Assembly: GCA_947630605.1 (NCBI GenBank)
Contig: CANRIO010000006.1
Span: forward strand, 1-40,663
Direction of reading: 5' to 3'
Length of the DNA stretch: 40,663 nt
Origin: an uncultured Clostridia bacterium
GTDB taxonomy: Bacteria > Bacillota > Clostridia > Christensenellales > Borkfalkiaceae
The notes under the pieces were generated by a model. It was not told the DNA's origin. It worked only from the letters and a program-made list of their open reading frames with translations, and did no database searches. A program made the translations under genes and the position numbers. Positions 9,635-31,420 of this stretch are shown piece by piece (the stretch's first letter is position 1; each line of letters opens with the position of its first letter).

Positions 9635-10465
9635 TCAGAGCTTGTTTCCCTTTTCCACATTGCACTTGTGGCAGAGCGTTTGCAAATTGTCGTAGGTGCT
9701 CTTCCCGCCCTTGGAGACGGGAATGATGTGGTCGATCTCAAGTGCCGCATACCGCTGAGAGGCTCCGCAATTCCGGCAGCGGTAGCCATCCCGCGCATAG
9801 ATGGAAAAGCGCATCCTGTTAGAAACCTTCCCCCGTTCAACACGGCATATGGCATCCCATATCCCACGGTCGCGATAGAATGTCCCGCTTTTATTCCCCA
9901 TCCGCTTCATGAGGGCAAGCACCCTTTCGGCGGAAAAATTCTCTTCCTTCGCCGCATAGATCCTTCCGTTGATCCGTGCGCAATACAGCCTTACCGTGAG
10001 AGAAAATTGCGTGACGGGCTGTGCAAGTTTTGTCTTATGGCAAAGTTCCTTCTCGACTTTTTGCACCTTCTCCCGCTTCAACTTCCCGAGGGGAGAAGAG
10101 AACTCGCCAAGCCGCAACGCCTTGATCTCATCGATATATTTGCAATATTCGCTTCGGTTGTAGGCCACCTTCGCGATCTGTTCCCCTATCTTCTTCGCCT
10201 GATATTGCAGCTGATAGATCAGAAAGTCCTCGCAGCTGATCGTGTCAAAAAAGTTCTCGTTGTCGTAGGTGTGCTTTTGGTCAAAATCGGCTTCGGGGAA
10301 GAAGGTGAACCTCGCATTGATCTCCTTGAGCGCGCGAAGACATGCGCTGTTTTCCGAAACAAACCGCTTGTAGCGCCCTTGGATAAAATATCTTCCAAGA
10401 AAGACCGCGAGCCCCGCCGCAAGGCAACCCAGCAAAACCGATAACGTAACGGTGAGATAGATCAT
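9635..10465 (-). CDS. Membrane-anchored HNH endonuclease-like protein
   Basis: 276 aa. Residues 2-28 form one transmembrane helix (TVTLSVLLGCLAAGLAVFLG). A long charged helical region follows, and the last 60 residues are an HNH domain: RDGYRCRNCG, LEIDHIIPVSKGGKSTYDNL, CHKCNVEKG, with both CxxC zinc knuckles and the catalytic DH intact. The HNH ending is like McrA/Cas9-type nuclease modules. Tethering such a domain to the membrane suggests a role in defence against incoming DNA, but no partner gene proves this. A good -35/-10 (10499-10527) and a GGGAAAAG ribosome site precede it. Confidence 0.8.
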   Translation of the reverse strand: MIYLTVTLSVLLGCLAAGLAVFLGRYFIQGRYKRFVSENSACLRALKEINARFTFFPEADFDQKHTYDNENFFDTISCEDFLIYQLQYQAKKIGEQIAKVAYNRSEYCKYIDEIKALRLGEFSSPLGKLKREKVQKVEKELCHKTKLAQPVTQFSLTVRLYCARINGRIYAAKEENFSAERVLALMKRMGNKSGTFYRDRGIWDAICRVERGKVSNRMRFSIYARDGYRCRNCGASQRYAALEIDHIIPVSKGGKSTYDNLQTLCHKCNVEKGNKL

Positions 10466-12319: not shown

Positions 12320-12652
12320 TTACTCCTTTTTATCTGTCTCTTTCGGCTCTTCCATCTCTTTCTTCGCCGCCGCCTTCGTGAGCTGCTTCCAGATCTGATT
12401 GACCCCTGTTGCGGAAAGCCCCGATGCCATTCCGACAAAAATCGCCACGATTACATTCTCTGCGGGGATGATTGCCGGCGCCGCGAAGAACGCCACGATG
12501 CCAAGGATCGCTCCAAGAAGCGCAGCCCAAAGCGGAATGAGATTTGTCCATATGCCTGCTTTGTCCTTTGTCAAGCTCCGATATATCGCCATAAAGATGT
12601 AGACGATCGCTGCGATTGTCGGCACGCTTACGAGTTCGATAAGATTGTCCAT
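12320..12652 (-). CDS. Phage holin-like protein
   Basis: 110 aa from the ATG with a GGAGG ribosome site (12652). Three hydrophobic segments: VSVPTIAAIVYIFMAIY, LIPLWAALLGAILGIVAFFAA and VIVAIFVGMASGLSATGVNQIW. A short, highly charged tail (KKEMEEPKETDKKE) follows. Size, topology and position at the end of the tail genes fit a Firmicutes phage holin, which forms the membrane lesion for lysis. No endolysin gene follows it. Confidence 0.75.
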   Translation of the reverse strand: MDNLIELVSVPTIAAIVYIFMAIYRSLTKDKAGIWTNLIPLWAALLGAILGIVAFFAAPAIIPAENVIVAIFVGMASGLSATGVNQIWKQLTKAAAKKEMEEPKETDKKE

Positions 12653-12877: not shown

Positions 12878-13219
12878 TCATGCCGCAGAGGGCGGCGCTT
12901 CGGGAAGTTCCATCACGTCCTGATAGATCTTTGTGATGATGCCGTTGCCGCCTAACGCGTGATATGCCCTGTACGAGTCGTCAAGTGCTTCCTTCATGTC
13001 GATCGGGCAATATCCGAGTTCAATGAACTCTTTATGTATTTGGATGATGTCATGCCGCAAAAGATTTCGCATCCCCGCGATGAGAGCCTCGTCGCGCTCC
13101 TTCGCCTCTTCATCCCTCTTTTTTCGCATCTTCAGCCTCGTTCCGAAGAATGCCGCCACCGCGCCGAGCGCGGCCGTGATGATCCACTGCAATACGGTCA
13201 ATACAATGCTTTCTGCCAT
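12878..13219 (-). CDS. Phage membrane-anchored helical protein
   Basis: 113 aa. An N-terminal transmembrane helix (VLTVLQWIITAALGAVAAFFG) is followed by a charged coiled coil (KMRKKRDEEAKERDEAL) and a conserved-looking end (SYRAYHALGGNGIITKIYQDVMELP). Proteins of this form occur beside holins in Firmicutes phages and may be accessory lysis or tail-associated proteins. It starts 4 bp after the nucleotidyltransferase gene, with GGGGGAGA as ribosome site. It is not an Avd protein: Avd has no transmembrane helix. Confidence 0.65.
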   Translation of the reverse strand: MAESIVLTVLQWIITAALGAVAAFFGTRLKMRKKRDEEAKERDEALIAGMRNLLRHDIIQIHKEFIELGYCPIDMKEALDDSYRAYHALGGNGIITKIYQDVMELPEAPPSAA

Positions 13220-13222
13220 GCT

Positions 13223-13861
13223 CTATGTCTCCCCCATCTCTTTTTGCAGGCTCTCGAAAAGCGCGCGATGATCCTCGATCGAAGTCTTGAGATCATGCGC
13301 CGCCTGCACCTCGCGCATCTGCTCTGCCGTCAGCCCGAGCGAGCCGTTCATGATCTTGTAAGCGAAGAGCAGGAAATTCCACAGCCGCTTTTGCGGCATT
13401 CTGTATTCCTCCTCGCCACCCCTCGCGCGCACCCTTTCTGGCGGCGCATTGAAAAGGTATCTATCGTAGAAGCCGAGGACCTTTCTCGCGAGATCTCTGT
13501 CCTTTACGACGTCATACCTCTTGAAGCCGTCATCCGTTCCGCAGACGAGGATCATGTCGGGACTTTCGGTGATATAGTAGAAGATCCTCCGCGACTTATC
13601 CACGCTGTTCCATTCGTCGAGCGTGTAGTAGGTGCATTCCACCTTGTAGCCTTTGATGCGGAACGCCTTCCCGATCTCCGCCTTCGGATTGTGCCAAGCG
13701 ACGATGACCTTGAAGTCAATGTCTCCCGGATGGTCGAGATAGAGCGCGCTCCCCTCGATGAAGATGGCGCGGACGGACTTCCGCTCAACACCGATCCTCT
13801 GCATCTCGTCAAGAAGCGTTGCGACAAAGTTCTTGTCTACTATTTCGCCAATGTTCCGCAC
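13223..13861 (-). CDS. Nucleotidyltransferase-fold protein overlapping the DGR reverse transcriptase
   Basis: 212 aa from a GTG at 13861, with a good AGGGAGG ribosome site 9 bp upstream. This start overlaps the 3' end of the RT gene by 53 bp, so the two are probably co-translated. The signature is FIEGSALYLDHPGDIDFKVIV, the Pol-beta/antitoxin-type hG-S...DhDh motif with two metal-binding Asp. A third carboxylate may lie in the YYTLDEW region. The C-terminal half is helical (RLWNFLLFAYKIMNG, and a helix to the end). Known DGR accessory proteins are Avd, HRDC and MutS-like types, none of which is of this fold. Function is unknown: it may act in cDNA synthesis, RNA tailing, or be a passenger phage gene. 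Confidence 0.75.
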   Translation of the reverse strand: MRNIGEIVDKNFVATLLDEMQRIGVERKSVRAIFIEGSALYLDHPGDIDFKVIVAWHNPKAEIGKAFRIKGYKVECTYYTLDEWNSVDKSRRIFYYITESPDMILVCGTDDGFKRYDVVKDRDLARKVLGFYDRYLFNAPPERVRARGGEEEYRMPQKRLWNFLLFAYKIMNGSLGLTAEQMREVQAAHDLKTSIEDHRALFESLQKEMGET

Positions 13862-14879
13862 GTCGCCTTTCCCTCCCTATCTCTCTCGTGATCGTTTTGA
13901 ACTTGATTTTTGTAGGCGCTTCAAGCCGCTTCTTAACAAAGCGCCTATAATTCGTCGTGCGCTTCAGCCAACCCATAAGGGAAACGATGGAGCGTGCGCG
14001 GCGGACCGACATCCTCTTTTTCATGCGATGATACAGCCGCGTGACCTTATAAAGGACTGGCTTGTTCAGCCGCGTAAACCCGCGTGAAACTTTATACCCA
14101 AGCACGTCGATCTCGTCGCCCTTTTCGAGGTTCAAAAGCTGACAGTTCTCCTTCAATGAAAGGTGAAGCTCCTCGGATAGATACTTCGAGATCTGCTTTT
14201 TGTAGTAGTGAAGTTTCCGCTTATTGTTCGCAAAGATCCAAATGTTATCGACATAGCGGATATATGACGGTGCATGAAGCTCCTGCTTGACATAGAAGTC
14301 GAAGCCTTGCAGATAGAAATTCGAGAGCCACTGCGACGAGTTCAATCCAAGCGGCAGCCCGCGACCGCGATTGCCGATCACTTGTCGGTAGAAATTCATG
14401 AAGTCCCTATCCGCCACTTTCCGCGCTACTTGTCTGAACAGGATCGCCTTGTCGATGCGGTCGTAGAACTTCTTGATATCGAGCTGAAGGCAGTACTTGT
14501 ACTCATGCACGGCTCTTTCGCAAAAGCCGAGGCACATGTCAAGCCCGCGCCCCTTTACATTCCCCACGCACCAATGATACATGGATTTGATGATGATCGG
14601 TTTGAGCTGATCCACCAAAAGGTAGTCAAAGGCCTTGTTCGGGAAAAAGCGGGAAATGGTGATCTCCCTCATTTTCTTTCGGTCTGGGACCGTTTTCTTC
14701 GTCACGGGGAACATCGGCGCGCTCATCGCCTCGAGCGCATCGTAGATCGCATCCGTCATCTTGTCGATCTTTTTGCGGACGCGATCCCGATACTTTTTGC
14801 GCGCCGAGACGTCCAAAAGGACCGTTTTGATATGCTCTTTGTCGAGCAGTTTTTTGTAGAGGTTTTTGTAGGTTTTCAT
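13809..14879 (-). CDS. Diversity-generating retroelement reverse transcriptase
   Basis: 356 aa, normal for a DGR RT. Fingers/palm motifs occur in order: LQLDIKKFYDRID (catalytic D134), the DGR-type GLPLGLNSSQ (174-183; retroviral RTs have QG here), and the active-site box RYVDNIWIF (D211, with Asn at 212 in place of the second Asp). LGYKVSRG follows, then a basic thumb (RLYHRMKKRMSVRRARS). It copies the adjacent template repeat RNA with adenine-specific errors and drives replacement of the variable repeat. It starts 122 bp after the template repeat. The ribosome site is weak (ACAGCAAAGAAA). The YVDN box differs from the usual YxDD; whether it keeps activity is untested here. Confidence 0.93.
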   Translation of the reverse strand: MKTYKNLYKKLLDKEHIKTVLLDVSARKKYRDRVRKKIDKMTDAIYDALEAMSAPMFPVTKKTVPDRKKMREITISRFFPNKAFDYLLVDQLKPIIIKSMYHWCVGNVKGRGLDMCLGFCERAVHEYKYCLQLDIKKFYDRIDKAILFRQVARKVADRDFMNFYRQVIGNRGRGLPLGLNSSQWLSNFYLQGFDFYVKQELHAPSYIRYVDNIWIFANNKRKLHYYKKQISKYLSEELHLSLKENCQLLNLEKGDEIDVLGYKVSRGFTRLNKPVLYKVTRLYHRMKKRMSVRRARSIVSLMGWLKRTTNYRRFVKKRLEAPTKIKFKTITREIGRERRRAEHWRNSRQELCRNAS

Positions 14880-15001
14880 TTTCTTTGCTGTCTTATCGGG
14901 TTTTCGATATTTCGCTACTCGCCCGACCCTCTATGACTCATCTTTTCGCCAAGGGGCAGAGCAGCAGTACGGCGGTATCAATATTCATTTTTTCAGACAT
15001 T

Positions 15002-15081
15002 AGACGCAGGGCCCCGCTGTTGTTGTTGTAGTTGTTCCAAGCGTTGTTGAACCTGTTGTTCCAGTTCGAGAAAAACAGCCC
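15002..15081 (-). repeat. DGR template repeat (TR)
   Basis: 80 bp, nearly identical at both ends to the variable repeat 235 bp away, with adenine-rich AAC codons in between. Read on the minus strand it would encode SNWNNRFNNAWNNYNNN before SGALRL, the asparagine-codon pattern typical of DGR templates. It lies between the target gene and the RT gene. Nothing indicates that it is translated. Confidence 0.93.
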
Positions 15082-15217
15082 TATTTTGCCGCACTGCCGC
15101 TTGTTTTAGCGACTTTTCTCTTGTCGTCGATACTTTATCCGAGCTTTATGTTTTCATCGCTCTATCTCCCTTTTTCATGCCTTATTTTCGTAAGGGGAGG
15201 CCCCCTTACCAACCCCC
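15082..15217. other. Spacer between variable-protein gene and TR
   Basis: 136 bp. It contains the post-VR hairpin (15190-15209) and only trivial reading frames on the minus strand. The Avd gene found here in classical DGRs is absent. Confidence 0.7.
15190..15209. promoter_or_regulatory. DGR post-VR hairpin/cruciform
   Basis: 8-bp stem GTAAGGGG / CCCCTTAC with a 4-nt loop (GCCT on the minus strand), starting 27 bp past the 3' end of the VR and just after the stop codon. In the Bordetella phage DGR a hairpin of the same size and position marks the target site for mutagenic homing. The match in geometry is good; function is inferred. Confidence 0.75.
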
Positions 15218-15856
15218 TTAAGAGGGCATTTTGCAAAGACGCAGGGCCCCGCTGTCGTAGTAGTAGCAAGCGTAGAACCCGTAGTACCAGTCCGAGAAAA
15301 ACAGCCCGTCCGACGTGAACAAACCGCCGTCATCCACATACTTTTGGAATACCCATACCTGTCCGCGCTCTGCGGGTTCGCTCCAGTTGCGGTACCGCGA
15401 GCAGTAATACTGTGAGTGGTGCCTTGCTTCGCCCGGATCTTCTTCATACGGGACCTGAAGATTTGCCGCCGGAACGGCAAGTGCTTTTTCCGTGCTGTCT
15501 ACGGAGATCTTTGTTATGGATCCTGCGTACCCTTCGGTATAGGACTCAGGAACGGAAAGGCTCGACTTCTTATAGCCTCCGCTCGTTGCCGCGTCCGTGT
15601 CGATAAGGTGGGTGTAGTAGACATTCCGCTCCTTATCCCAGTAGATCCCGTTGATATTCGTCCCCGCGAATGCGGCATCGAGGCCAAAGAGCTTGAGTTG
15701 CCCCGAGGTCTTATTCATTCCGCTGTGCGTCGTGATCTCGTCCGTCGTCCCTGTCGTGCAGTCCTGCGTCTGTCCATCTCCCAATTCGAGCATATTGTAA
15801 ATATCGGCACGCGCGAAAAAGATCGATGCGAGCTTGACGAGCAGATCCTTATACAT
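15218..15856 (-). CDS. DGR variable protein, C-terminal half of a lectin-like receptor-binding domain
   Basis: 212 aa from the ATG in TGATG at the end of the fibre gene (15856). The frame is open further upstream, to at least 15916, without a better start. It carries SGMNKTSGQLKLFGLDAAF and QVWVFQKYVDDGGLF, typical of the C-type-lectin fold of DGR targets. The variable C-terminus reads SDWYYGFYACYYYDSGALRL, rich in Tyr, Trp, Asp and Ser as in binding surfaces. The first residues (MYKDLLVKLASIFFARADIYNMLELGDGQ) look like the middle of the lectin domain, not a natural N-terminus. The missing N-terminal half is at the end of the 1140-aa fibre, in the other frame. It is made either by reinitiation at TGATG or as a -1 frameshift fusion. 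Confidence 0.88.
   Translation of the reverse strand: MYKDLLVKLASIFFARADIYNMLELGDGQTQDCTTGTTDEITTHSGMNKTSGQLKLFGLDAAFAGTNINGIYWDKERNVYYTHLIDTDAATSGGYKKSSLSVPESYTEGYAGSITKISVDSTEKALAVPAANLQVPYEEDPGEARHHSQYYCSRYRNWSEPAERGQVWVFQKYVDDGGLFTSDGLFFSDWYYGFYACYYYDSGALRLCKMPS
15237..15307 (-). repeat. DGR variable repeat (VR)
   Basis: 71 bp in the last codons of the target gene. Aligned with the TR it has eight substitutions, every one at a template adenine (A to T or G at first codon positions of AAC/AGG), plus 3-bp and 6-bp in-frame gaps. The 3' 17 bp (AGCGGGGCCCTGCGTCT) is GC-rich and identical to the TR, as expected for the initiation-of-homing site. Confidence 0.93.
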
Positions 15857-18800
15857 CAGTGGAGCATGTGATAGGTGGGGTCCGTCGCCTTGATCATCTC
15901 CATTCCCGCTTCCCAATTCACATAGGAAAGGGCATAGTTCACGCCCGAGACGCTCCGCACCTTGATCTCGCCCGGACTGCGGTCTGAAAGGTCGTCCTCT
16001 GCTTCGCTCTCGGAAACCGTGTCATACGGCGATGACATATACTTCGCGATCTGAACGCTTCCATAGCCGTTGTAAGCGGAATTGCTCGTCCACTTCTTAA
16101 ACGCCGGATGAAGCTCGTAGCCGAGGCTCTCGTCCCCATCCTCGTAGAGCTTCACGCTCAACGCCTCGACCTCGCCGTCATGGATTCGGTCGTAGCGGAA
16201 CGCCATCGGGGGGATGATGACGAAGACATTCCCCTTTTCGTCCGTCGTCTCTTGGAAGTGGAAGAAGTCTTGCATCGCGGGATCGCTCAACACAAAATCG
16301 ATGAGGTTTTCGTTGCCGTCCTGCGGAACGAGAGACAGCTCGACGCCGCTCGCGTCGTATGTACGCTTCCATACGGGGTTGACGCTCCCCATGCCGCTGA
16401 CGCCGTAGATCTTGCTTGTAGGACGTTTCCCCATCATATTGAAGATGGGATCGCCCCAGCCGCTCTCTTTTTTATTATAGACGTCGCCCGTCTCGGTGTC
16501 AAGATAATGGTCGCCTTCCTTCCCCGTCTCATCGGTCGGCTCGCCAAAGTCGCTGAGCCATGTCGCGCCGTCCGCCCCGTCTTTGCCATTTTCGCCATCG
16601 GCTCCATTCTCGCCCTGCGCGCGGACGCCCGTGTCTCTCTCTCCGATGAACCAGTTGTCGTTCTCTCCGATATGCGGCATGTTCGCGGCGCGTTCTTTCT
16701 CTGCCGCCGCCCGCTCTTCCTCGGCTCTGACGCGTGCCGCTTCGCTCTCGGCCCGCACGGCTTCGGCGGATGCACGCTTGCCTTCTTCCTCGTCCCGCTC
16801 CGTCTCGGCTTTCGCACGGACTTCCTCGGCATCCTCACGTTTCGTTTCAGCAGTTGATCTCTTCTTCTCCGCCTCGTCCCGTTCTTTCTCCGCAGATACT
16901 CTTGCCGCCTCAGCGGTCACACGGGTGCCTTCGGCGACCGCACGGTCCGTTTCTGCCTTTGCGCGGTCCTTTTCCCCCTGCGCTCTCTCCGCCTCATTCT
17001 GCGCCCGAGTTTCCTCGGCTGTGCCGCGTTTGGCTTCCGCCTTCTCTCTTTCCGTCTCCGCATCCGCCCGTTTCTCTTCGGCTTTGGAGCGGTTCTCTTC
17101 CGCCGCCACCCGAAGGGTCTCTGCCGTGGCACGATCATTCTCGGCTGTCGCACGCAGCTTTTCATTCTCGGCGCGCGCTTTCTCGGCGGTATCACGCAAA
17201 AGCTCTGCCGCGACTCTCGTCTGCTCGGCGGTGCCTCTCTCTTCGTCCGCCTGAGCGCGCTTATCCTCGGCAGATGACCGCGAAGTCTCGGCGGCCTCAC
17301 GTTTCCCTTCGGCGATCGCCCTTTCGCTCTCGGCGGAAGCACGCTCTTTTTCTGCTTTCGCGCGCTCATCTTCGGCTCCCGCACGGGTCCCCTCTGCCGC
17401 CGCCCTTTGAAGCTCTGCCGTCTTTCTCTTTTCCTCTTCGGCGGCGCGCCCTTCCTCGCTCTGCGAACGGGTTTGCTCCGCCGCCACGCGCTCCGTCTCG
17501 GCTTTTGTGCGTTCTTTGTCGGCGGCGATCCTCGCGTCCTCATGCTCGACGCGCTCCGCCTCAGCGGTTACGCGCTTGCCCTCTTCTACGGCACGGTCCG
17601 TTTCCGCCTTCGCCCTCTCCTTCTCGGCGGCATCACGCGCCTTTTCTGCGGTATCGCGCTTCTCTTCGGCGGTTGATCTCTCCGTCTCGGCGGTCACGCG
17701 TTCGCCCTCGGCGGTCTCCCGTAAAGTCTCGGACGCCGCTCTCTTCTCTTCGGCTTTGGAGCGGTTCCCTTCCGCCGCCGCACGGTCCTGCTCTGCGGTA
17801 GCCCTCTGCGCCTCGGCTTCCCCGCGCTTTTCCTCTGCACCCGCACGCTTGTCCTCGGCGGACTCTCTTGCCTTCTCGGAAGTTTCACGGGTACCCTCGG
17901 AGACCGCACGCCCCGTTTCTGCCTTTGCACGGTCCTTCTCTGCCGCGACGCGGTCTGCCTCGGAAGTTTCGCGCGCTTCCTCGGATGCGACTCTGCCCTG
18001 TTCCGCACTCTCGCGCGTCTGCTCCGAAGATGCACGCTCTTCCTCTGCGGCGGATCTTCCCTGTTCAGCGGTTTCGCGTAAGCTCTCGGCTGTGTTACGC
18101 TCCCCCTCGGTTTTCACTCTCTCGCTTTCCGCTTCGGTTCTCTTCCCCTCGGCGGTGTCGCGCTTCGTCTCATCTGCCGCCCGTTGCTTTTCTGCGGTGT
18201 CGCGCTTCCCTTCTTCTACGGCGCGCGCCGATTCGGCGGTAGTTCTCCCCTGCTCCGCCGTCACGCGGCCCGTTTCAGCCTTCTCTCTTTGCGTTTCGGC
18301 AACGGCTCTGCCGCTCTCTGCTTCCTTACGGCTCGCCTCTGCGGATGCACGCTCAAGCTCCGCCGCCGCCCGCCCGCTTTCCTGTCTCTTGCGGGTTTCC
18401 TCGGCGGATGAGCGCTCCGTCTCGGCACTCTCCCGCTCCTCCTCGGCTGTGTTGCGCACGCCCTCTGCGATCGCTCTTTCGCTCTCAGCGGATGCGCGCT
18501 CTTCCTCTGCCGCGACACGGGCCTGTTCTGCTTCCTCGCGCTCGCTCTCCGCGCTCCCACGCGTCTGCTCCGCCACCGTCCGCTCTTCTTCGGCTTTCGC
18601 ACGCTCATTCTCCGCAGCGTCTCTTCCCTGTTCTGCGAGATCGCGGGAGGTCTCGGCCGCGTTACGCTGCCCCTCGGCTTCGACGCGTGTCTCTTCCGCA
18701 GACGCTCTCCCGCTCTCGGCTTCCTCGCGTCTTTTTTCCGCTGCCGCGCGGTTTTCCTCTTCCTCGCCGGCGTTCTTCTCGAACTCGCTAAGATCTTGAA

Positions 18801-19278
18801 GGAGCTTAGAGAGAAGATCGTATGTCTTGCCATCCATTATGTCGGTGTATCTCGCGCCGCTCGACTGCACATAGACGCGGAAGTTCGCCGAGCGGATGAG
18901 ATAGTTCGTGCCGTCCTCTTTCACGCCCCAAACCATCGCGTCGCAAAGGATGAAGTCGTCTGCAATCTCGACTGCCCAAGCGTCCAGCGGAAGCGTGAAT
19001 GTGCCGTCCCCGTTGTCGATGCCGAGGAACGCCTTCGACTGTCCGTCTCCGCGTGCGACGCCGATCCCGACCTTCGTCACCGTGCCGTAGTCGGAATAAG
19101 GGATCTTCTTCCTGTCATCCATCAGGGTCACAAGGAAGAAGCGCGAGTTGAAGTCTTCCTGCTTTGCAAAAATGGGACGGCCCCCAAAGTTTTTTGAGCC
19201 GAATGTTGCTTCCGATTTTCCCCCGCACCCATCCACGGGACTGTCGATCGGAAGTTCCAAGATCGCTTTGTAGTCCAT
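15856..19278 (-). CDS. Long coiled-coil tail fibre with BppU-type head and truncated lectin end
   Basis: 1140 aa. Residues 1-160 resemble the BppU N-terminal baseplate-attachment domain of Firmicutes phages (SRFFLVTLMDDRKKIPYSDYG, FILCDAMVWGVKEDG). Residues about 172-865 form an almost uninterrupted heptad array [xAExxRx], about 99 copies, an extended trimeric coiled coil by inference. A collagen-like run (GENGADGENGKDGADGA) follows. Residues about 950-1140 have the opening half of a DGR-target lectin domain (NPVWKRTYDASG, VFVIIPPMAFRYDRI, YELHPAFKKW, QIAKYMSSPYD). It ends abruptly at TYHMLH. The AAAGGAG ribosome site is 9 bp from the ATG. It should be the shaft that carries the variable tip. 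Confidence 0.85.
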   Translation of the reverse strand: MDYKAILELPIDSPVDGCGGKSEATFGSKNFGGRPIFAKQEDFNSRFFLVTLMDDRKKIPYSDYGTVTKVGIGVARGDGQSKAFLGIDNGDGTFTLPLDAWAVEIADDFILCDAMVWGVKEDGTNYLIRSANFRVYVQSSGARYTDIMDGKTYDLLSKLLQDLSEFEKNAGEEEENRAAAEKRREEAESGRASAEETRVEAEGQRNAAETSRDLAEQGRDAAENERAKAEEERTVAEQTRGSAESEREEAEQARVAAEEERASAESERAIAEGVRNTAEEERESAETERSSAEETRKRQESGRAAAELERASAEASRKEAESGRAVAETQREKAETGRVTAEQGRTTAESARAVEEGKRDTAEKQRAADETKRDTAEGKRTEAESERVKTEGERNTAESLRETAEQGRSAAEEERASSEQTRESAEQGRVASEEARETSEADRVAAEKDRAKAETGRAVSEGTRETSEKARESAEDKRAGAEEKRGEAEAQRATAEQDRAAAEGNRSKAEEKRAASETLRETAEGERVTAETERSTAEEKRDTAEKARDAAEKERAKAETDRAVEEGKRVTAEAERVEHEDARIAADKERTKAETERVAAEQTRSQSEEGRAAEEEKRKTAELQRAAAEGTRAGAEDERAKAEKERASAESERAIAEGKREAAETSRSSAEDKRAQADEERGTAEQTRVAAELLRDTAEKARAENEKLRATAENDRATAETLRVAAEENRSKAEEKRADAETEREKAEAKRGTAEETRAQNEAERAQGEKDRAKAETDRAVAEGTRVTAEAARVSAEKERDEAEKKRSTAETKREDAEEVRAKAETERDEEEGKRASAEAVRAESEAARVRAEEERAAAEKERAANMPHIGENDNWFIGERDTGVRAQGENGADGENGKDGADGATWLSDFGEPTDETGKEGDHYLDTETGDVYNKKESGWGDPIFNMMGKRPTSKIYGVSGMGSVNPVWKRTYDASGVELSLVPQDGNENLIDFVLSDPAMQDFFHFQETTDEKGNVFVIIPPMAFRYDRIHDGEVEALSVKLYEDGDESLGYELHPAFKKWTSNSAYNGYGSVQIAKYMSSPYDTVSESEAEDDLSDRSPGEIKVRSVSGVNYALSYVNWEAGMEMIKATDPTYHMLH
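16680..18765 (-). repeat. 21-bp-period heptad-coding array
   Basis: About 2.1 kb inside the fibre gene in which every 21 bp encodes xAExxRx. Synonymous and x-position changes keep most DNA copies different. This explains the long open antisense frames on the plus strand. Confidence 0.85.
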
Positions 19279-19725: not shown

Positions 19726-20751
19726 TCAAACCTGCCACCACGCGTATATTTTTATCGGGTAATCATCCCCTTGACCTACTCCCTGTCCGCCAATAAATTC
19801 AAGCGTAATCTTTCCCGTTGTGCTATCTATACTGAGAAGATAAAGAACGTAATTTCTCCCGCCCTCTACTTCCCAATATCCATGACGGTCAAACGATGCG
19901 ATAAGAAAATCACCGATCGAGCCTCTGAACCCTTCCGGTATTGTTCCGATTTCCTTCTTCGTTCCATAACTTGTCGTAAAATACGGAATTGTCACATCCA
20001 ATCTCATGTGACAATAGTTCCCTTCCTTGATCAACTTATTTGTTGATGCCGTTCCGTACGATAATTGAACTTCCCCTTCTCTACGTCCGAGTTTTTCGAG
20101 TCTGTCATTGATTGCTTGGAGATGCGCCGCTAATGTTTTGTCGGAATACCCTTCCGCATACTGCGCATATTCGGAATACACGGCATGCCCGCTGTTAATC
20201 GCGTAGAGCGGCTGATATCCATCATAATTACCAAAGCTACCCTCCGTGATTGTAGTGATAGTCCCGTCTTCATTAAATCCAACCTTGGCAAGTATCATCC
20301 GAAAAATTCCGTTTGGGTTGATACACAAATTGTCTTTCCGAAACCACGCCACCCCTTCCGGACTATCAGGGCCATAGTGGATGTCGATTTTTCCGACCGC
20401 CTCGTCAGGATTACTGAGATTCCATTCAAGGTAAATATAGAACATCCCATTAGGATTTGACCGATCCGCCTTGAGATGAATCGTCTCTTCGTTCAAGATA
20501 TCATATCCATATGCCGTCGCCATGCCCGGACCGACCGTGATATCATCAACCGTCTTCCCCTCGATTTTCCAGTTAAAGCTCGGATTGTCGTCTCTCATTT
20601 CCCCAGTCGGATCTGCATCTGAATAAAATGTGTTATGCAGGATTCCCACATCGAACCCTCGGAGAAACCGAAGCGCCTCCGCCTGAAATCTTCCATCGAT
20701 TGGATTGATGTTTTTTTCTGCGTTCCCCGCCGCCGCTACCTTTAATCTCAT
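19726..20751 (-). CDS. Baseplate protein, paralogue B
   Basis: 341 aa from the ATG at 20751; a TTG two codons upstream overlaps the previous stop. Residues 1-200 are clearly homologous to the neighbouring gene: MRLKVAAAGNAEKNINPIDGRFQAE..., GPGMATAYGYDI, LEWNLSNPDEAVGKIDIH. The C-terminal 110 residues differ and are beta-rich (YVLYLLSIDSTTGKITLEFIGG), probably a receptor- or fibre-contacting head. It is a tail-tip structural protein by context. Confidence 0.75.
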   Translation of the reverse strand: MRLKVAAAGNAEKNINPIDGRFQAEALRFLRGFDVGILHNTFYSDADPTGEMRDDNPSFNWKIEGKTVDDITVGPGMATAYGYDILNEETIHLKADRSNPNGMFYIYLEWNLSNPDEAVGKIDIHYGPDSPEGVAWFRKDNLCINPNGIFRMILAKVGFNEDGTITTITEGSFGNYDGYQPLYAINSGHAVYSEYAQYAEGYSDKTLAAHLQAINDRLEKLGRREGEVQLSYGTASTNKLIKEGNYCHMRLDVTIPYFTTSYGTKKEIGTIPEGFRGSIGDFLIASFDRHGYWEVEGGRNYVLYLLSIDSTTGKITLEFIGGQGVGQGDDYPIKIYAWWQV

Positions 20752-20753
20752 AC

Positions 20754-21437
20754 TCAATATCCCAGTTTTTCAAGCTCCGAATAAATTCTACCCAGATGCT
20801 CGCTTATGCTCATTCCATACATGTCGTCCTGCGCTACTTTTGCATTCGTCGCTCGAGCTGCATGGCTACAGTTGTTCACAAAAAGCGGATGCTCGATCGT
20901 AGGTGCCCCGAACACACCCCATCGCGCCGGGCTGTTAAGTGCCCCCTGCGGGTTTATCCTGATGCGCCAAAGGATCATTTGATATACGCCAAGCGGGTTG
21001 TTGATGAGGTTATCCTGCCTCTGCGGCGTCCACTCTCCGTTCGTCCCGTTGTCGTGGATGTCGATCTTCCCGACCGCCTCGTCAGGGTTGCTAAAATCCC
21101 ATTCGAGATATACAAAAATGTATTTCCAACCCGCAGATGGAAGTACTGCAGTTAAATGCACATCTTCCTCGCTGATAATGTCATAGCCGTACGCCGTCGC
21201 CATGCCCGGACGTATGACGACCTGTCCATCTTTTGAATTTATCAGATCGATATCCCAGTTGTCGCGTGGCTTTGCCGTGCGCTTTTCGCCCGTTTGGTCA
21301 TCTTCAGAATAAAACGCATTCCAAAGGACGCCCACGTCATATCCGCGAAGAAAACGCAATGCCTCCGCCTGAAAGCACGGAACGATGACATTGATATTTT
21401 TTTCGGCGTTGCCTTCCGCCGCCACCTTCAGCCTCAT
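20754..21437 (-). CDS. Baseplate protein, paralogue A
   Basis: 227 aa. The ATG at 21437 overlaps the upstream stop as ATGA, with an AGGGGG ribosome site. It shares with paralogue B the opening MRLKVAAEGNAEKNIN, FQAEALRFLRGYDVG, RPGMATAYGYDI and LEWDFSNPDEAVGKIDIH, and ends in a short helix (SISEHLGRIYSELEKLGY). It lacks the extra C-terminal domain of B. It arose by tandem duplication. Confidence 0.75.
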   Translation of the reverse strand: MRLKVAAEGNAEKNINVIVPCFQAEALRFLRGYDVGVLWNAFYSEDDQTGEKRTAKPRDNWDIDLINSKDGQVVIRPGMATAYGYDIISEEDVHLTAVLPSAGWKYIFVYLEWDFSNPDEAVGKIDIHDNGTNGEWTPQRQDNLINNPLGVYQMILWRIRINPQGALNSPARWGVFGAPTIEHPLFVNNCSHAARATNAKVAQDDMYGMSISEHLGRIYSELEKLGY

Positions 21438-22663
21438 GTCCCCCTCACTGCGCGCATGGTCTGCATTTGAATGAGATCGGTATAGTTGATCCTGATCTTC
21501 CCGAAGATGAGCGTCACCTCGCTTGAGTCGCTGCTCTCCTTTCTCCCTGTATAAATCGACTTCCACACGCGCTCGGAATATTCTTCTACGATGGCATCTC
21601 CCGCCATCATGTCGTCCTGCTCCGTGACGACGGTGATGGCATCGCCGATCCTAAGGTTCTTCGGCATCATGGCACAATTCCGATCGATCTTTACGCTAAT
21701 ATAGTGATTGAAGTCGTTGTAGCGAAGCGCGTCCTCTGCGATATCCTGCTCCGTCGCTCCATCGTTGTTGTCGACGTTGAACTCCGCCACGGTGAGCTTA
21801 TACGGCTGAACGCGGTTCGGAGAAGATGCGTCCCGCGTCACCGTGTTGTCCGAAAGGAGATACCATGTCGAGAGCAAGGCTTTTGTCTCTCCATCTATCA
21901 CTTGGCATACTGTCGCGGCAGCCGCGCTGTCCTCCGTGTGCGTCACCGTCATGCCGTGGATATTGTTTTTCAGAATGCGTCCCTCCGTCGTGTTGTGCGT
22001 GATGAACACATCGATATATGCCCTTGATGCCTCAAAAACGAGGCGGAATTGCACGACGACATTGTGCTTGTTGAAGAGATCAACCAGCCATGTTCGCAGG
22101 TTCACCGTGTTCCCCGTGTAGTCCCAAACCGCAGGAACATTATACTTCCCCGCGCCGTCTTTGCCGCCGCCGCTCGTCCTCACGATAATCGGCAGGCGTT
22201 TGTATCTGTCCGTGTTCTGCGATGCGTAATATGCCGCGATGATCCTTCCCGTCCCCTCGACGCCATCATAAAGATAGTTGATCACGGGATCGTCTTCGCC
22301 GCCCGTGCCGTTGTCGCGCGTTGGGTTGAGTTCTGCTCCATCAAAAAGAGATAGGAGCGATTTGTAAAGGATCTTCCTTTTCTCGTTGTCGACGCTCGTG
22401 ATGACGCCGACGTCGTATGTTCCCGCGTCGTCGATAAGCGCGATGATCTGCCCCGCGACCGCCTTCGTCTCTTCCGCGATATACACCGTGCTGTTGTTCG
22501 CGACCGTGTAATCGTTATCGATCTCATATCCGATGGCGACGCCGCCTGCAGCATAGGTGAGGGTGTCGAAATTCCAAAACTCGAATGTCCCCTCATCTTT
22601 TGTCGGAAGATCCCAAGGATATGCCTCTTTCAGCTCCGTGAATTTATAGGCGCGATATTGCAT
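21434..22663 (-). CDS. Tal-like baseplate hub protein
   Basis: 409 aa. It directly follows Dit, with the start overlapping the Dit stop (TGATG). The N-terminus (MQYRAYKFTELKEAYPWD) and the repeated beta segments, including ILKNNIHGMTVTHTED and MPKNLRIGDAITVVTE, suit the gp27-like hub fold of siphophage tail-associated proteins. No lysozyme or peptidase domain is visible, so it is a short structural version. Confidence 0.7.
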   Translation of the reverse strand: MQYRAYKFTELKEAYPWDLPTKDEGTFEFWNFDTLTYAAGGVAIGYEIDNDYTVANNSTVYIAEETKAVAGQIIALIDDAGTYDVGVITSVDNEKRKILYKSLLSLFDGAELNPTRDNGTGGEDDPVINYLYDGVEGTGRIIAAYYASQNTDRYKRLPIIVRTSGGGKDGAGKYNVPAVWDYTGNTVNLRTWLVDLFNKHNVVVQFRLVFEASRAYIDVFITHNTTEGRILKNNIHGMTVTHTEDSAAAATVCQVIDGETKALLSTWYLLSDNTVTRDASSPNRVQPYKLTVAEFNVDNNDGATEQDIAEDALRYNDFNHYISVKIDRNCAMMPKNLRIGDAITVVTEQDDMMAGDAIVEEYSERVWKSIYTGRKESSDSSEVTLIFGKIRINYTDLIQMQTMRAVRGT

Positions 22664-23589: not shown

Positions 23590-25182
23590 TTATCTGACTA
23601 CCCCGCCGAGTTCCTGATTGACGATATCGCGAAGTATTTTTTCATGAATGCTTTCTCCGACGACTTCAGCGTTCTGCTCGTTGATCTGAGTTCCGTCCCC
23701 GGATGCCTCAACATCCACATGGATATTCAAGTCACGCTGGCTGTTCGACTCATATGTCGCCGCCGCGTTATAAGCCGTCTCTCCCGCCATGTCGTTCATC
23801 TTCTCGTCGACACCGTTAAGTTGATCGAGCATGTTCGAAGCGCTCTCGATCGCGGAATTTGACTTTCCCGTGAAAATGCTGATGATGGATATAAGTACCA
23901 ATAGCGCGGCGGATATTGCTAAAATAATCGGAAGGAATGGAGCGGTCGCCGCGTTCAGTCCCATCTGCGCGGCCGTCTGCGCTGTCGTCGCTGCTCTTAC
24001 AAGATGAACTGCCGATGCGATAGCTTTTATAATTGCTATGAGCTTCGGAAGAACGAGGATGATTGCGATCAATGCGAGAAGCATTTTTTGTTGCGCCGGA
24101 GTCATGCTCTTGAACCAGTCCGCCACGCGGTTTATGATCGGAATGACCGTTTCCTTCAGCAGATTGCAAAAAGCCTCAAAAGCGGGCATCGCCGCGACGA
24201 GAAGCTCTGCGCTCGCTGCAGATGCCTGTTCCTTCAATGCGAGTAGGCGGTTTGCCGCCGCATCTGCCGCCGCCGCTTGCTCTGTCGTGATGATCCCATT
24301 CTCCATGAGCGCTTGGTCAAGCTCATCGAGCTTCTCTTGCTGCGTCCCCGCGATGTTCGCGATCTCGAGACCCGTATCGCCGAAGATTCCCTGCGCGATC
24401 GTCGCACGAAGCGTGGCATCCTCTACGCCGCGTAAGCGTTCGTAGATCATATCGAAGACTTCGCCGTTCGATTTCCCGTTGATATCTGCCTGAGCGATCC
24501 CAAGCTGCTTGAGATAGGTCAGATATCGCGCACCCCTTCCTGCCGTGATCGATGTAAGCACCAATCCTACCTTTTCGAGGCTCTTCGTGTAGGCATCCTG
24601 ATCCCTTCCAAGCATTCCGAGTCGGTTGGACCATATCTGCAGATTTTCCGCGGTTGTGCCGAAATGCGTTGCGTCATCAGCGAGCGCATCCCCCGTCTTG
24701 ATCGCCGCCGTCATCAGCGCGACAAGAACCCCCACCACGGCGAGGGTGGCTTTTTGGACCTTCTTCGCCTTTGCCTCCATCTTATCGAAGCCGTTTAGTA
24801 GGTTGTTGAATTTTGCGTCCGCGATCTCCCTGTTTTGCTGTCGCAGTGCCTCGGTGAGTTCCTTCTCTTTCTGCTCGGTCGCCGTGATCTGCGTCCTTAC
24901 CTTCTGAAGCTGTCGATTGTACGCATCCTGCGCGATCGCGCCCGATTTGAAATCCGCGTTAAGCTGCACCTCTTTTTGGTGCAATGTTGCGAGCTTTTGT
25001 GCATTTGTTTGAAGGTTTTGCGAAAGCAAAGAAAATTTCTGCCTGACCGCATCGACATTGCTCGGATCCATTTTAAGACTTTTGTCTAAAGTCTTCACCT
25101 TTGCATCCGTCGTCTTCAGGCTTCCGTTTAACTGTTTTAATTTTTTGTCCAGCTCGTCAAAGCTGCGTCCGATCTTTGCCAT
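23590..25182 (-). CDS. Tape measure protein
   Basis: 530 aa, short for the family. Residues 1-120 are coiled coil (FDELDKKLKQLNGSLKTTDAKVKTLDKSLKMDPSN and following). A phage-TMP core follows (VGLVLTSITAGRGARYLTYLKQLGIAQ). Two hydrophobic stretches occur near 360-390 (MLLALIAIILVLPKLIAIIKAIASA) and 415-445 (FLPIILAISAALLVLISIISIFTG), the membrane-active part used in DNA delivery. If length scales as in other siphophages the tail is under 100 nm. AGGGGGAACG is the ribosome site; a tRNA-like hairpin lies in the leader. Confidence 0.88.
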   Translation of the reverse strand: MAKIGRSFDELDKKLKQLNGSLKTTDAKVKTLDKSLKMDPSNVDAVRQKFSLLSQNLQTNAQKLATLHQKEVQLNADFKSGAIAQDAYNRQLQKVRTQITATEQKEKELTEALRQQNREIADAKFNNLLNGFDKMEAKAKKVQKATLAVVGVLVALMTAAIKTGDALADDATHFGTTAENLQIWSNRLGMLGRDQDAYTKSLEKVGLVLTSITAGRGARYLTYLKQLGIAQADINGKSNGEVFDMIYERLRGVEDATLRATIAQGIFGDTGLEIANIAGTQQEKLDELDQALMENGIITTEQAAAADAAANRLLALKEQASAASAELLVAAMPAFEAFCNLLKETVIPIINRVADWFKSMTPAQQKMLLALIAIILVLPKLIAIIKAIASAVHLVRAATTAQTAAQMGLNAATAPFLPIILAISAALLVLISIISIFTGKSNSAIESASNMLDQLNGVDEKMNDMAGETAYNAAATYESNSQRDLNIHVDVEASGDGTQINEQNAEVVGESIHEKILRDIVNQELGGVVR

Positions 25183-28239: not shown

Positions 28240-29475
28240 TCAAACTTTTTCGCCTTTGCAGATGACGAGAAGGCTCGTATCGTCGACGACTTTCCCGTCC
28301 GCAAAGAGTGTCGCCTTGTGAACGGTCTCGTCGGTTTCCTCATCGATATACTTCCTCATCTGAAGCTGCATATTGCTGTTGAAGTAGTACTTGCTGTCGT
28401 TGAAGAAGTACGCGAATGCGGTGTCCTTCGATGCCTCCGCTGCGCCTTCGATCGAGTCGAATGTAGGAAGCCCCTGCTCCTCCAAGATCACAACGTCGCG
28501 CCCGAAGAGACGATAAACGATTTCGCCATCTGCGCCCGGTGTGGCTGTAGCGACAAGGTTGCCCGCCTCGTCTTTCAGCCCCGCAAGGTATTTCTCCCAG
28601 TCGCATTTGTTAATGTGCAGATGGCACCCACTCCTTCCTTTGAGGGGTACTTTTGACCAGATGTCGAGCCACTTTTCGTGACTTTTCATCTCGGATTCCT
28701 TGATGACGATCGCTTTTTTTTCATAGTCAGCCCCAGTTATTATGCCCGTCGGCTTCGCGTCGCCATCCCCGCTGATGATCGCTTCGTCGAAGCCCTCATC
28801 GATGCCGACGCGAATCGCCTCGAGGATGCAGGATTCAAACTGAGCAAGCGTCTTGATCTGTGTCTCGAGCGAAACGGCGACGCGGATCTGCCCCTTGTAT
28901 CCGTTGAATGTGATACTTCCGGTGGTGCCTTTCTGCTTTTTGGCGACCTTATTTTCGGCCACCCACTCGAGCTTCGGATGGAAGTTGGACTTGGGGATTG
29001 CTACGCCCGACGGATAGCTCGACCTATGTACGCGGGCGAAAACTGAACCCGCCTGCCCCCTTTCGATATAGAGCAGATCGGTGATCGTCGTGGGTATGAT
29101 GACGGACTCGGCGTCGCTCTGAACAAAGCCTTCATCGCGCGCCTTTGTGACGGCGCGATCAATCGCCTCCCCACGCGTTCCGCGCATTATGTAGTCCATG
29201 AATGCCTGACGGTATTCAAGCGTTCCGAAGGGGCCGACCCCGCTTCTCTTTTCGGCCACGCCGCCGACTACGGGCGAGAACTCTGTCGGCTCGGTACGCA
29301 GCTCGATTGCCTGCTGCGTAAGCTCCATCCTCTCCTGCGAAAGCGTCGCTGCCTCCGCTTCCAGCTGTTCGAGCCTCTCGTTCGTCACGCCTTGTGCGCG
29401 GGATTCAGTCCTGATGACCGCCATGCGCGCATTGATCTCGTTCATTCTGGCCATGATTTCTGCAAGTTTTTTCAT
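28240..29475 (-). CDS. Major capsid protein, HK97 family
   Basis: 411 aa. Residues 1-60 are a coiled coil (LAEIMARMNEINARMAVIRTESR...) serving as the delta/scaffold domain removed by the protease. The mature shell follows: YRQAFMDYIMRG, VIPTTITDLLYIERGQAGSV, SNFHPKLEWVAENK, GDGDAKPTGIITG, FGRDVVILEEQGLPTFD. These are the HK97-fold E-loop, P- and A-domain landmarks. Confidence 0.93.
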   Translation of the reverse strand: MKKLAEIMARMNEINARMAVIRTESRAQGVTNERLEQLEAEAATLSQERMELTQQAIELRTEPTEFSPVVGGVAEKRSGVGPFGTLEYRQAFMDYIMRGTRGEAIDRAVTKARDEGFVQSDAESVIIPTTITDLLYIERGQAGSVFARVHRSSYPSGVAIPKSNFHPKLEWVAENKVAKKQKGTTGSITFNGYKGQIRVAVSLETQIKTLAQFESCILEAIRVGIDEGFDEAIISGDGDAKPTGIITGADYEKKAIVIKESEMKSHEKWLDIWSKVPLKGRSGCHLHINKCDWEKYLAGLKDEAGNLVATATPGADGEIVYRLFGRDVVILEEQGLPTFDSIEGAAEASKDTAFAYFFNDSKYYFNSNMQLQMRKYIDEETDETVHKATLFADGKVVDDTSLLVICKGEKV

Positions 29476-29490: not shown

Positions 29491-30129
29491 CTATTCGGTT
29501 AAGATTTTGATTTTTTTCAGCAACGCCTGACGTTTCTGCTCGTCCAGCATAGCGGCCCTCTCGTCCAGATCGCCGCGCCGTCTGGCATAAATGCTCGTGT
29601 AGGGATTTGCGCCGAAGTCGACCGCCGAAACGTCGAACACGCGCTGTACTTTTCTGACATAGAAGGTGATGCGCTCTGCATCTTCTTCTATGCGCTCGCT
29701 GTCTGCTTCCTCGGTGAACGCCCAGCTCATTTGTGAGACGGTTCCGCTCGACACTTCGAGATAAAGGTCGCGCCCTCCCGATGTTGGAAGAAGATTCATG
29801 CGAACATCGACGCGGTCGGGAAGCACAGTGATCGTCAGCCTCCCCTGCTCCGTCTTGCTCGTCGTCCGCGCCGGTGTTCCTCTGCTGTCGTTATGATTGT
29901 ATTTGACGGGGACGTCGTGATAGTCCGCCTCGTCAAACGCGCCGCGCTCGATGACCTCGTAGACATCTTTTCCGCGATAGCTGAAGAGCTTATAGGGCTG
30001 GTCGAATATGACAGGCGTCCCGCAAAGGATGAGATCTCCCCCCTCGCTTGTCGGCTCTGCCCGAACCTCCATCAGCCTTCGATAATCGTGATATAAGTCG
30101 CGCAATTTCGCTCCTGCATCGTTATTCAT
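29491..30129 (-). CDS. Prohead protease, HK97 type (U35)
   Basis: 212 aa. Begins with GTPVIFDQPYKLFSYRGKDVYEVIERGAF, has the catalytic His in VPVKYNHNDSRG and Ser in SSGTVSQMSWAFTEE, then FDVSAVDFGANPYTS. It cleaves scaffold segments of the capsid protein during maturation. The start overlaps the portal stop by 8 bp. Confidence 0.93.
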   Translation of the reverse strand: MNNDAGAKLRDLYHDYRRLMEVRAEPTSEGGDLILCGTPVIFDQPYKLFSYRGKDVYEVIERGAFDEADYHDVPVKYNHNDSRGTPARTTSKTEQGRLTITVLPDRVDVRMNLLPTSGGRDLYLEVSSGTVSQMSWAFTEEADSERIEEDAERITFYVRKVQRVFDVSAVDFGANPYTSIYARRRGDLDERAAMLDEQKRQALLKKIKILTE

Positions 30130-31420
30130 TCTTCATATCCTCCTTGCTTTCTTCTTCCGCTTCTTCCGTTTTGCCGCCGCACGCCGATGGCTTTTTCTCC
30201 TGATCCTGTCTGCTCGCATTGTAGTTTTGCGACGTGACAACGATCGAGCGATTGCCCTTTGGAACCGGCAAGCCGAGAATGTCGCCCAAGGTCCCCAGCG
30301 TAAATGCCCCGATCTCCCTCGCGGCATTGAATACCTTAAGCCGCGTGTCCATTGACAAATATGCGAAGCTCCTGTTCCTGAACACGACTCGATTTCCGAC
30401 CTCGCGTTCGCGCTGCGTAAAGATCTTCCGCATCATTTCTTGTGCGACCCGCATGAAGAACGGCTCGAGCGTGCGCTCATAGTACGCCACCATCTCCTCT
30501 TCGGTCGCCGTTCCCGAGATCACTTTCTCGGGGCAGCCCATGTACTTATAGACGGCTTGGTTCCACTGGTTCGCTTCGGGATAGGATGCCGTCTTTTGCG
30601 AAGCATTTGCCGTGACGGGCGTAAGCTTCGTCGTAGGATCCGTGAAGATCACCCCGATCGGATTCTTCGCATTCGGCTTGAGATAGTTTTTCGTGAAATT
30701 CTCCGCTTTTTCTTTCAGTCGCTCCTCGCTCTCTTTTGTAGATGACTCTGCGATATATCGGATGAAGGATGATGTGATGATCGCATTTTCCATTCCCTTG
30801 TAGTTCAGATTGATAAGCGATATGACGCGTTTGATCGCCTCATTCGTTTTGTCGTCTCCAAACATTGGATCGTGCGTTACCATCTTCGGAATGAGAATAA
30901 GCTCATTTTCCAAAGCCGAATACTCGCGTCCGTTGAGCGTGAATTTGAAGAGCATCTCCTCCGTCGAGATTTTCGCGAATGTGACCTCCGATGGATCGAT
31001 GCTCCAAAATGCCACGATGTTCCCGAAGCGGTCCGTTTCTTTGTATATCACGGAATTATTGTACTTGAAGTAGAAGTACGCCACCCGCTCCCAAAAAACC
31101 GATGCCGTCATCGTTGAATTGGGACTTATTTGCAGGAGATAGTCGAGGTATTTGTTGTCATGAATCTGCTCGCCATCTTCCTTGATGCGAACGCATGAAA
31201 ATTCCGCCTTGCTGCAATAAGTTGCATTTGTCTGCAGACACGATGCAAAGGCTTCGTTAAATTCCAGCTCGGGATTGATGCCCGCGTAAAATCTCGGCGT
31301 GATCCCGGAGTCGGCTCCGAGCTGTACGAGCAGAAAGCCCGAGTTTTCCGTCTGCCTCGCTCGTTCTTTTTCCGCCGCCCGTTCCGAGCGGCCTTCGCGC
31401 CATTTTGCAAAAATTCCCAT
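30122..31420 (-). CDS. Portal protein, HK97 family
   Basis: 432 aa. NPELEFNEAFASCLQTNATYCSKAEFSCV, ISPNSTMTASVFWERVAYFYFKYNN, GVIFTDPTTKLTPV and YERTLEPFFMRVAQEM are portal signatures. It forms the dodecameric DNA gate and binds the terminase. The long charged C-terminus is usual. Confidence 0.92.
   Translation of the reverse strand: MGIFAKWREGRSERAAEKERARQTENSGFLLVQLGADSGITPRFYAGINPELEFNEAFASCLQTNATYCSKAEFSCVRIKEDGEQIHDNKYLDYLLQISPNSTMTASVFWERVAYFYFKYNNSVIYKETDRFGNIVAFWSIDPSEVTFAKISTEEMLFKFTLNGREYSALENELILIPKMVTHDPMFGDDKTNEAIKRVISLINLNYKGMENAIITSSFIRYIAESSTKESEERLKEKAENFTKNYLKPNAKNPIGVIFTDPTTKLTPVTANASQKTASYPEANQWNQAVYKYMGCPEKVISGTATEEEMVAYYERTLEPFFMRVAQEMMRKIFTQREREVGNRVVFRNRSFAYLSMDTRLKVFNAAREIGAFTLGTLGDILGLPVPKGNRSIVVTSQNYNASRQDQEKKPSACGGKTEEAEEESKEDMKNE

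What the first reader, a model, noticed from the sequence alone, without database searches (positions are those of the whole stretch)
13223..15856. Complete DGR in a prophage, without avd
TR (15002-15081), VR (15237-15307), DGR-type RT, GC-rich homing end and post-VR hairpin are all present, in the order target - hairpin - TR - RT. All eight TR/VR substitutions are at template adenines. There is no avd-sized helical gene between target and TR or after the RT.
Basis: partly seen in the sequence, partly recalled or inferred. Interest (0 to 1): 0.75.

Follow-up and report, generated by a model that had tools for sequence, protein, structure and literature searches.

The report
Phage gene mutator with altered active site
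A gut-bacterial prophage carries a real, recently active mutation machine (a diversity-generating retroelement) that rewrites the end of a tail gene; lacking the usual helper gene is common, but its reverse transcriptase has a change at a normally near-invariant catalytic residue that has arisen repeatedly in apparently working systems of this kind.

Summary
The DGR is real. Two same-genus prophages (G057, G135) carry the same cassette. Their 23 TR/VR differences, and the 8 here once 3- and 6-nt gaps are allowed, all fall on template adenines (31 of 31). Only its own TR explains each VR without non-adenine changes, so homing continued after these lineages split.

Lack of avd is ordinary: 0 of 80 best-scoring IMG/VR relatives matched an Avd profile.

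A pattern scan of IMG/VR found 19 more YxDN RT ORFs (16 distinct); the tree needs at least 7 changes of the trait. Of these 22 loci, 16 have adenine-type TR/VR pairs. YxDN goes with loss of a lysine near the motif-A catalytic Asp (K in 133 of 148 YxDD rows, 1 of 19 YxDN rows). My searches of the held papers found no mention.

Also: the VR-bearing gene is split here but whole in both relatives; a nucleotidyltransferase-like gene follows the RT but is separable. New variant of a known kind.

The parts
15237..15307 (-). VR, 71 nt, at the 3' end of the target ORF, ending in the GC-rich GGGGCCCTGCGTCT shared with TR
15002..15081 (-). TR, 80 nt, AAC-rich, between target and RT
   Evidence: one strong TR place and one strong VR place in each of three genomes
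15190..15209 (-). hairpin after the target stop, 8-bp stem, kept in two relatives with loop changes
15218..15856 (-). VR-bearing C-terminal ORF (212 aa) of the tail protein; its start overlaps the stop of the upstream ORF
15856..19278 (-). tail-fibre-like ORF (1140 aa) with long charged repeats; in G057 and G135 one ORF runs through to the VR
13809..14879 (-). DGR reverse transcriptase, 356 aa
   Evidence: RVT_1, phrog_1423, model pLDDT 91.2 with top PDB hit 8ub7 BPP-1 DGR RT, TM 0.82 by query length
14244..14246 (-). codon for Asn212 at the second Asp position of YxDD (YVDN)
14484..14486 (-). codon for Gln132, two residues before catalytic Asp134; Lys in most YxDD DGR RTs
15088..15101 (-). 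arm 5' of TR, able to pair over 14 bp with the arm 3' of TR
14960..14973 (-). arm 3' of TR, partner of 15088-15101
13223..13861 (-). nucleotidyltransferase-like ORF (212 aa, GSALY...DIDF), overlaps the RT end; under purifying selection; role unknown
   Evidence: no match in Pfam, PADLOC, PHROGs, NCBIfam or PDB

Best explanation
A prophage-borne diversity-generating retroelement that has diversified the end of a tail protein by mutagenic retrohoming. A TR-containing RNA, probably held in a stem formed by arms on either side of TR, is copied by the RT, which misincorporates opposite template adenines; the cDNA replaces VR, guided by the shared GC-rich end and the hairpin behind the stop. The RT acts without Avd, alone or with an unidentified partner. 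Its active site carries Asn in place of the second Asp of YxDD, together with loss of a motif-A lysine, and has still supported adenine mutagenesis. The 9-nt shortening of this VR fits slippage in AAC repeats. Shown here: anatomy, adenine restriction, each VR tracking its own TR, purifying selection, recurrence of YxDN. Inferred: that the YVDN enzyme made the changes, the biochemical steps, the RNA clamp, the Lys-Asp contact and the absence of any helper.
For: 31 of 31 TR/VR substitutions at A in three genomes; each VR needs 0 non-A changes from its own TR and 1 to 10 from the others. RT dN/dS 0.10-0.12, ratios. One strong TR and one strong VR per genome; one RT match in each of G057 and G135 in the profile search. 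Fold closest to the BPP-1 DGR RT. YxDN: 19 RT ORFs among 22 IMG/VR pattern hits; 10 label changes on a FastTree tree, at least 7 forced by supported branches; adenine-type pairs in 16 of 22 DN loci (window clade included) and 107 of 162 DD loci, similar spectra. Lys132 in 133 of 148 DD rows and 1 of 19 DN rows. AAC-repeat indels in multiples of three are mentioned in PMC12875486 (passages read).
Against: No reads or time series, so present activity is not shown. The target gene is split in this assembly. The adenine test here depends on a two-gap alignment. The pair finder used for DN and DD loci prefers adenine mismatches, and it did not find the window's own gapped pair. The arm covariation rests on three sequences (60 of 500 shuffles as good), and TR flank pairing is only slightly above control across 115 DGRs. 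The Lys132 link reaches only median p 0.0625 on independent pairs. Absence of a helper rests on profile searches.
Confidence: 0.85

Rival explanations
1. The YVDN enzyme is dead or dying and the VR differences were made earlier by a YxDD ancestor, or by another RT in trans.
For: The target gene is split here. The second Asp is rarely replaced: 84 of 86 relatives aligned have xDD.
Against: All three genomes share YVDN, yet each VR tracks its own diverged TR; RT dN/dS is about 0.1; the profile search found one RT match in each of G057 and G135; other YxDN lineages also have adenine-type pairs.
Confidence: 0.08
2. The nucleotidyltransferase-like gene behind the RT replaces Avd as a dedicated DGR accessory.
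For: Adjacent, overlapping the RT end, and conserved in three genomes at dN/dS 0.13-0.16.
Against: G142 has a distant homologue between the tail gene and the small phrog_4105-like gene (one ORF in between), and G142 is not among the 16 of 103 genomes with an RT match; G009 has the RT and then that small gene without it (likeness of the small genes judged by eye). No match in the 184-locus RT set beyond the three sister loci (best other hit E 0.26).
Confidence: 0.15
3. The VR-bearing ORF is a separate gene made by translational coupling rather than a broken tail gene.
For: Stop and start overlap at 15854-15858.
Against: In both sister loci one ORF runs through (1242 and 1425 codons, stop to stop). 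A consensus error in a metagenome assembly is equally possible.
Confidence: 0.2

Closest known systems
Bordetella phage BPP-1 DGR (bRT, PDB 8ub7)
   Same: RT fold (TM 0.82), TR/VR adenine logic, hairpin behind the VR (BPP-1 anatomy from passages of PMC12875486 and PMC6642488)
   Different: No avd; YVDN where bRT has YMDD; Gln where bRT has Lys before the motif-A Asp (alignment); TR starts 226 nt after VR with no gene between
Avd-less phage DGRs such as Butyrivibrio phage Arawn and Faecalibacterium phage FP_Epona
   Same: Adenine-type TR/VR pair with short spacing before the RT; no Avd profile match in the fetched stretches
   Different: Both have YMDD and Lys at position 132
YxDN DGR RTs of IMG/VR (for example L125, L134, L136, L138)
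   Same: YxDN with an adenine-type TR/VR pair
   Different: Distant: 21-31% identity to the window RT for the six in alignment A7; 7 of 22 DN loci have an Avd match
Mononegavirales and Birnaviridae RNA polymerases with Asn in motif C
   Same: Asn at the second motif-C Asp in a working polymerase (PMC4634563, passages read)
   Different: RNA-dependent RNA polymerases; no kinship claimed

Membership tests
Diversity-generating retroelement | TR and VR with differences confined to template adenines | tested here: met
   8 of 8 here with two gaps (12 of 13 with one gap), 10 of 10 and 13 of 13 in relatives
Diversity-generating retroelement | RT of the DGR clade with (I/V/L)GxxxSQ in domain 4 | tested here: met
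   LGLNSSQ; fold and profile closest to BPP-1 bRT; motif definition from passages of PMC4244168
Diversity-generating retroelement | YxDD active site | tested here: not met
   YVDN. Y(V/M)DD is given as a feature of DGR RTs (PMC4244168), but I do not treat it as a requirement, since 14 of the 19 IMG/VR YxDN RT loci carry adenine-type pairs
Diversity-generating retroelement | VR at the 3' end of a target gene, with GC-rich end and hairpin | tested here: met
   the target gene itself is split in this assembly
Diversity-generating retroelement | accessory gene avd, HRDC or MSL | tested here: not met
   No match (only 115 had ringing controls); MutS_I only on other contigs. Not required: Avd_like is near 62% of DGR RTs in complete genomes (PMC8934634)
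Diversity-generating retroelement | mutagenic reverse transcription and homing in vivo | not testable with these tools
   only evolutionary evidence
DNA polymerase beta-like nucleotidyltransferase (ORF 13223-13861) | GS...DxD motif and fold | tested here: inconclusive
   GSALYL..DIDF seen by eye (motif recalled); no family match; model pLDDT 43.8

The most novel reading that the evidence does not exclude
DGR reverse transcriptases have repeatedly exchanged the second catalytic Asp of YxDD for Asn, in step with loss of a lysine beside the motif-A Asp, without losing adenine mutagenesis. The two residues may form a Lys-Asp contact that is dismantled as a unit, giving a natural class of reverse transcriptases with altered metal use or speed and an active site otherwise described in some viral RNA polymerases.
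Probability: 0.5. Interest if true: 0.72.

Novelty: new variant of a known kind. Interest (0 to 1): 0.55.

Why it matters
The second Asp of the YxDD box is treated as part of the RT catalytic core, and DGR RTs are described with Y(V/M)DD (PMC4244168, passages). Natural enzymes that do without it and still mutagenise adenines make the role of that residue, and of the lysine that leaves with it, directly testable, and may bear on why these RTs err at adenine. The three sister cassettes, each VR tracking its own TR, also give a clean natural example of a DGR without a recognisable Avd that has stayed active.

Tried and rejected
Window RT alone and NTase profile A1 in IMG/VR: no relatives. NTase against phage records: 8 records, all Arthrobacter phage tail proteins at E 0.3, taken as chance. 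Sister copies of the NTase gave only sub-threshold Pfam hits (best E 0.12 and 0.093). NTase structure: poor model, no fold search made. DN against DD mutation spectra: similar, no sign that Asn changes the spectrum. Association of residue 214 with YxDN: strong by Fisher test but not supported by independent pairs (median p 0.25). Independent pairs for Lys132: 6 pairs, median p 0.0625. The first DN pattern was mis-spaced and missed the window itself; remade. Wu et al., cited as PMC5758913, is not held, so its accessory-gene counts were not read. DGR with nucleotidyltransferase: 6 papers hold both terms, seen only as a listing.

Dropped rows and limits: L127, L139 and L133 of the 22 DN pattern hits are not RTs; identical rows were merged, 184 to 167. 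The DD pattern scan stopped at 120 rows, of which 80 were listed and used, so DD is undercounted. DN rows were collected by their motif, so their share in the tree is not a frequency. Among the 30 best-scoring loci of 291 genomes of the class, 24 looked DGR-like by a motif rule (window included) and 0 of the other 23 had DN.
Full report
What is there. The cassette lies on the minus strand in a prophage: terminase 31437-33095, portal 30122-31420, major head protein 28240-29475 and tape measure 23590-25182, a tail-fibre-like ORF 15856-19278 (best matches unknown function and virion structural protein, weaker tail fibre), a Hol44-family holin at 12320-12652. Order: tail ORF, overlapping VR-bearing ORF 15218-15856, hairpin 15190-15209, TR 15002-15081, RT 13809-14879, a 212-aa nucleotidyltransferase-like ORF 13223-13861 overlapping the RT end, and a small phrog_4105 gene with a weak holin match, 12878-13219. 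The window is contig C6 of a 1.34-Mb, 74%-complete genome. The two sister contigs are titled as MAGs of uncultured Clostridia, isolates Lapin-008 and Lapin-024.

TR and VR. The repeat is far above chance (45.5 against at most 18.0 in 200 shuffles). TR is 80 nt and VR 71 nt. With a 3-nt and a 6-nt gap 8 of 8 substitutions are at A; one 9-nt gap gives 13 substitutions with 1 non-A. In-frame loss inside AAC repeats fits slippage in multiples of three, mentioned for DGR RTs in PMC12875486 (passages read).

Relatives show homing after divergence. G057 (RT 84% identical) and G135 (RT 94%) carry the same cassette. Their TR and VR are all 80 nt; substitutions are 10 of 10 and 13 of 13 at A. VR of G057 needs 0 non-A changes from its own TR but 3 or 10 from the others; VR of G135 needs 0 against 6 or 8; VR of the window 0 against 1 or 7. 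So VR was rewritten from TR after the lineages parted. Each genome has one strong TR place and one strong VR place, and the profile search found one RT match in each of G057 and G135. dN/dS, computed from the dN and dS, is 0.10-0.12 for the RT and 0.13-0.16 for the nucleotidyltransferase-like gene.

Avd. A profile from six Avd proteins of other loci matched 7 of 22 YxDN loci, 28 of 162 YxDD loci, 0 of the 80 best-scoring IMG/VR relatives, and not the window or the two sister loci; it matched none of the three genomes (no control). NF033474 recognises two of these Avd proteins but nothing in the own genome (no control). HRDC gave no match in the own genome while 8 of 14 control genomes rang; MutS_I is on other contigs only. 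PMC8934634 gives Avd_like beside 62% of DGR RTs in complete genomes (passages). Many IMG/VR loci are truncated, so 0 of 80 may undercount. TR starts less than 300 nt after VR in 64 of the 101 unique YxDD pairs. The missing avd is therefore not the surprise.

The active site. The RT model (pLDDT 91.2) is closest in the PDB to the BPP-1 DGR RT 8ub7 (TM 0.82 by query length), whose RYMDDIV aligns with RYVDNIW here. Of 86 relatives in the alignment, 84 have xDD and the other two are G057 and G135. A pattern scan of IMG/VR for an RT stretch ending in RYxDN gave 22 loci, 19 of them RT ORFs, 16 distinct; the matching DD scan stopped at 120 rows. Among 167 distinct RTs, 19 DN rows need 10 changes on a FastTree tree, at least 7 forced by supported branches; that tree has long branches, flagged by the tool. 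Adenine-type TR/VR pairs were found in 16 of 22 DN loci (14 of the 19 from IMG/VR plus G057 and G135; the window's gapped pair is not found by this ungapped finder) and 107 of 162 DD loci. Spectra A>G/A>T/A>C are 0.565/0.282/0.153 (216 of 368 TR adenines, 14 unique pairs) and 0.522/0.265/0.212 (1451 of 2590, 101 unique pairs). The finder favours adenine mismatches; the same run with other bases gave C 0, T 0, G 5 of 22 in DN loci and C 3, T 2, G 20 of 162 in DD loci; I read the G cases as A>G seen backwards. Of the 30 best-scoring loci in 291 genomes of the class, 0 of 23 other DGR-like RTs had DN, and 0 of five named phages. So YxDN looks rare but recurrent.

A partner residue. Scanning columns for association with DN, the strongest besides 212 is residue 132, two before catalytic Asp134: Lys in 133 of 148 DD rows, 1 of 19 DN rows (Gln in the window clade; Glu, Ser, His, Cys, Val, Met or Leu elsewhere; the exception is L137). 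In 6 independent pairs on supported branches it goes the same way in 4.8 on average and the other way in 0.0; sign test median p 0.0625. Outside that sample Lys is present in 22 of 23 DGR-like DD RTs and 5 of 5 named phages. A Lys-Asp contact that is lost as a unit is my inference. PMC4634563 (passages read) says that some viral RNA polymerases have Asn at this place, with effects on activity and on the use of manganese.

RNA. Arms 15088-15101 and 14960-14973 can pair over 14 bp across TR; 13 or 14 pairs hold in each of three sequences with 2 two-sided changes, but 60 of 500 shuffles do as well, so this is suggestive. The whole 281-nt stretch folds only slightly better than shuffles (z -1.29). 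Pairing of TR flanks is slightly stronger than cross-locus controls over 115 DGRs (mean z -0.82; 16 of 115 below -2).

Nucleotidyltransferase-like gene. GSALYL...DIDF resembles GS..DxD (motif recalled). No library recognised it and its model failed (pLDDT 43.8). A distant homologue lies between the tail gene and the small phrog_4105-like gene in G142, with one ORF in between, and G142 is not among the genomes with an RT match (E 5.9e-6); G009 has the RT without it. It is separable from the DGR.

Split target. In G057 and G135 the VR ends one ORF of 1242 and 1425 codons (stop to stop); in the window the frame is broken where the stop and start overlap at 15854-15858. Intact copies exist; whether this is biology or assembly error is open.

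Literature. Searches of the held library for YxDN with DGR or RT, YMDN with RT and YMDN/YVDN/YADN/YXDN with diversity-generating found no paper. A wider search on catalytic aspartate, asparagine, RT and DGR listed 8 of 27 papers; I read passages of three of them and saw no DGR RT with DN. The library lacks most subscription papers, so this is not proof of absence in print. PMC4244168 (passages) gives Y(V/M)DD as a feature of DGR RTs.

Verdict. Observation right; the missing avd is ordinary; the YVDN site, its recurrence and its partner residue are the interesting part: a new variant of a known kind.

Noticed in passing
window 13223-13861: Unrecognised nucleotidyltransferase-like gene under purifying selection, overlapping the RT end; homologue in a prophage whose genome shows no RT match (G142).
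   Followed up: partly
window 15854-15858: VR-bearing tail gene split by overlapping stop and start; one ORF in two sister prophages.
   Followed up: partly
window 19726-21566: Two neighbouring ORFs (19726-20757, 20754-21566) look by eye like diverged tandem copies (shared RLKVAA.GNAEKNIN...FQAEALRFLRG).
   Followed up: no
window 33970-35484: ParB-like domain joined to a DNA methyltransferase (phrog_498, phrog_620).
   Followed up: no
window 35917-36825: Replication initiation protein with weaker rolling-circle initiator matches (phrog_3584, phrog_3419) inside the tailed prophage.
   Followed up: no
window 9635-10465: HNH endonuclease domain behind an N-terminal hydrophobic stretch seen by eye.
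   Followed up: no
L281 (G216:C122): DGR-like RT match with five in-frame stops (4 TGA, 1 TAA) beside an adenine-type TR/VR pair: a decayed RT or another code.
   Followed up: no
window 15856-19278: Tail-fibre-like ORF with hundreds of residues of AE..R-type charged repeats.
   Followed up: no
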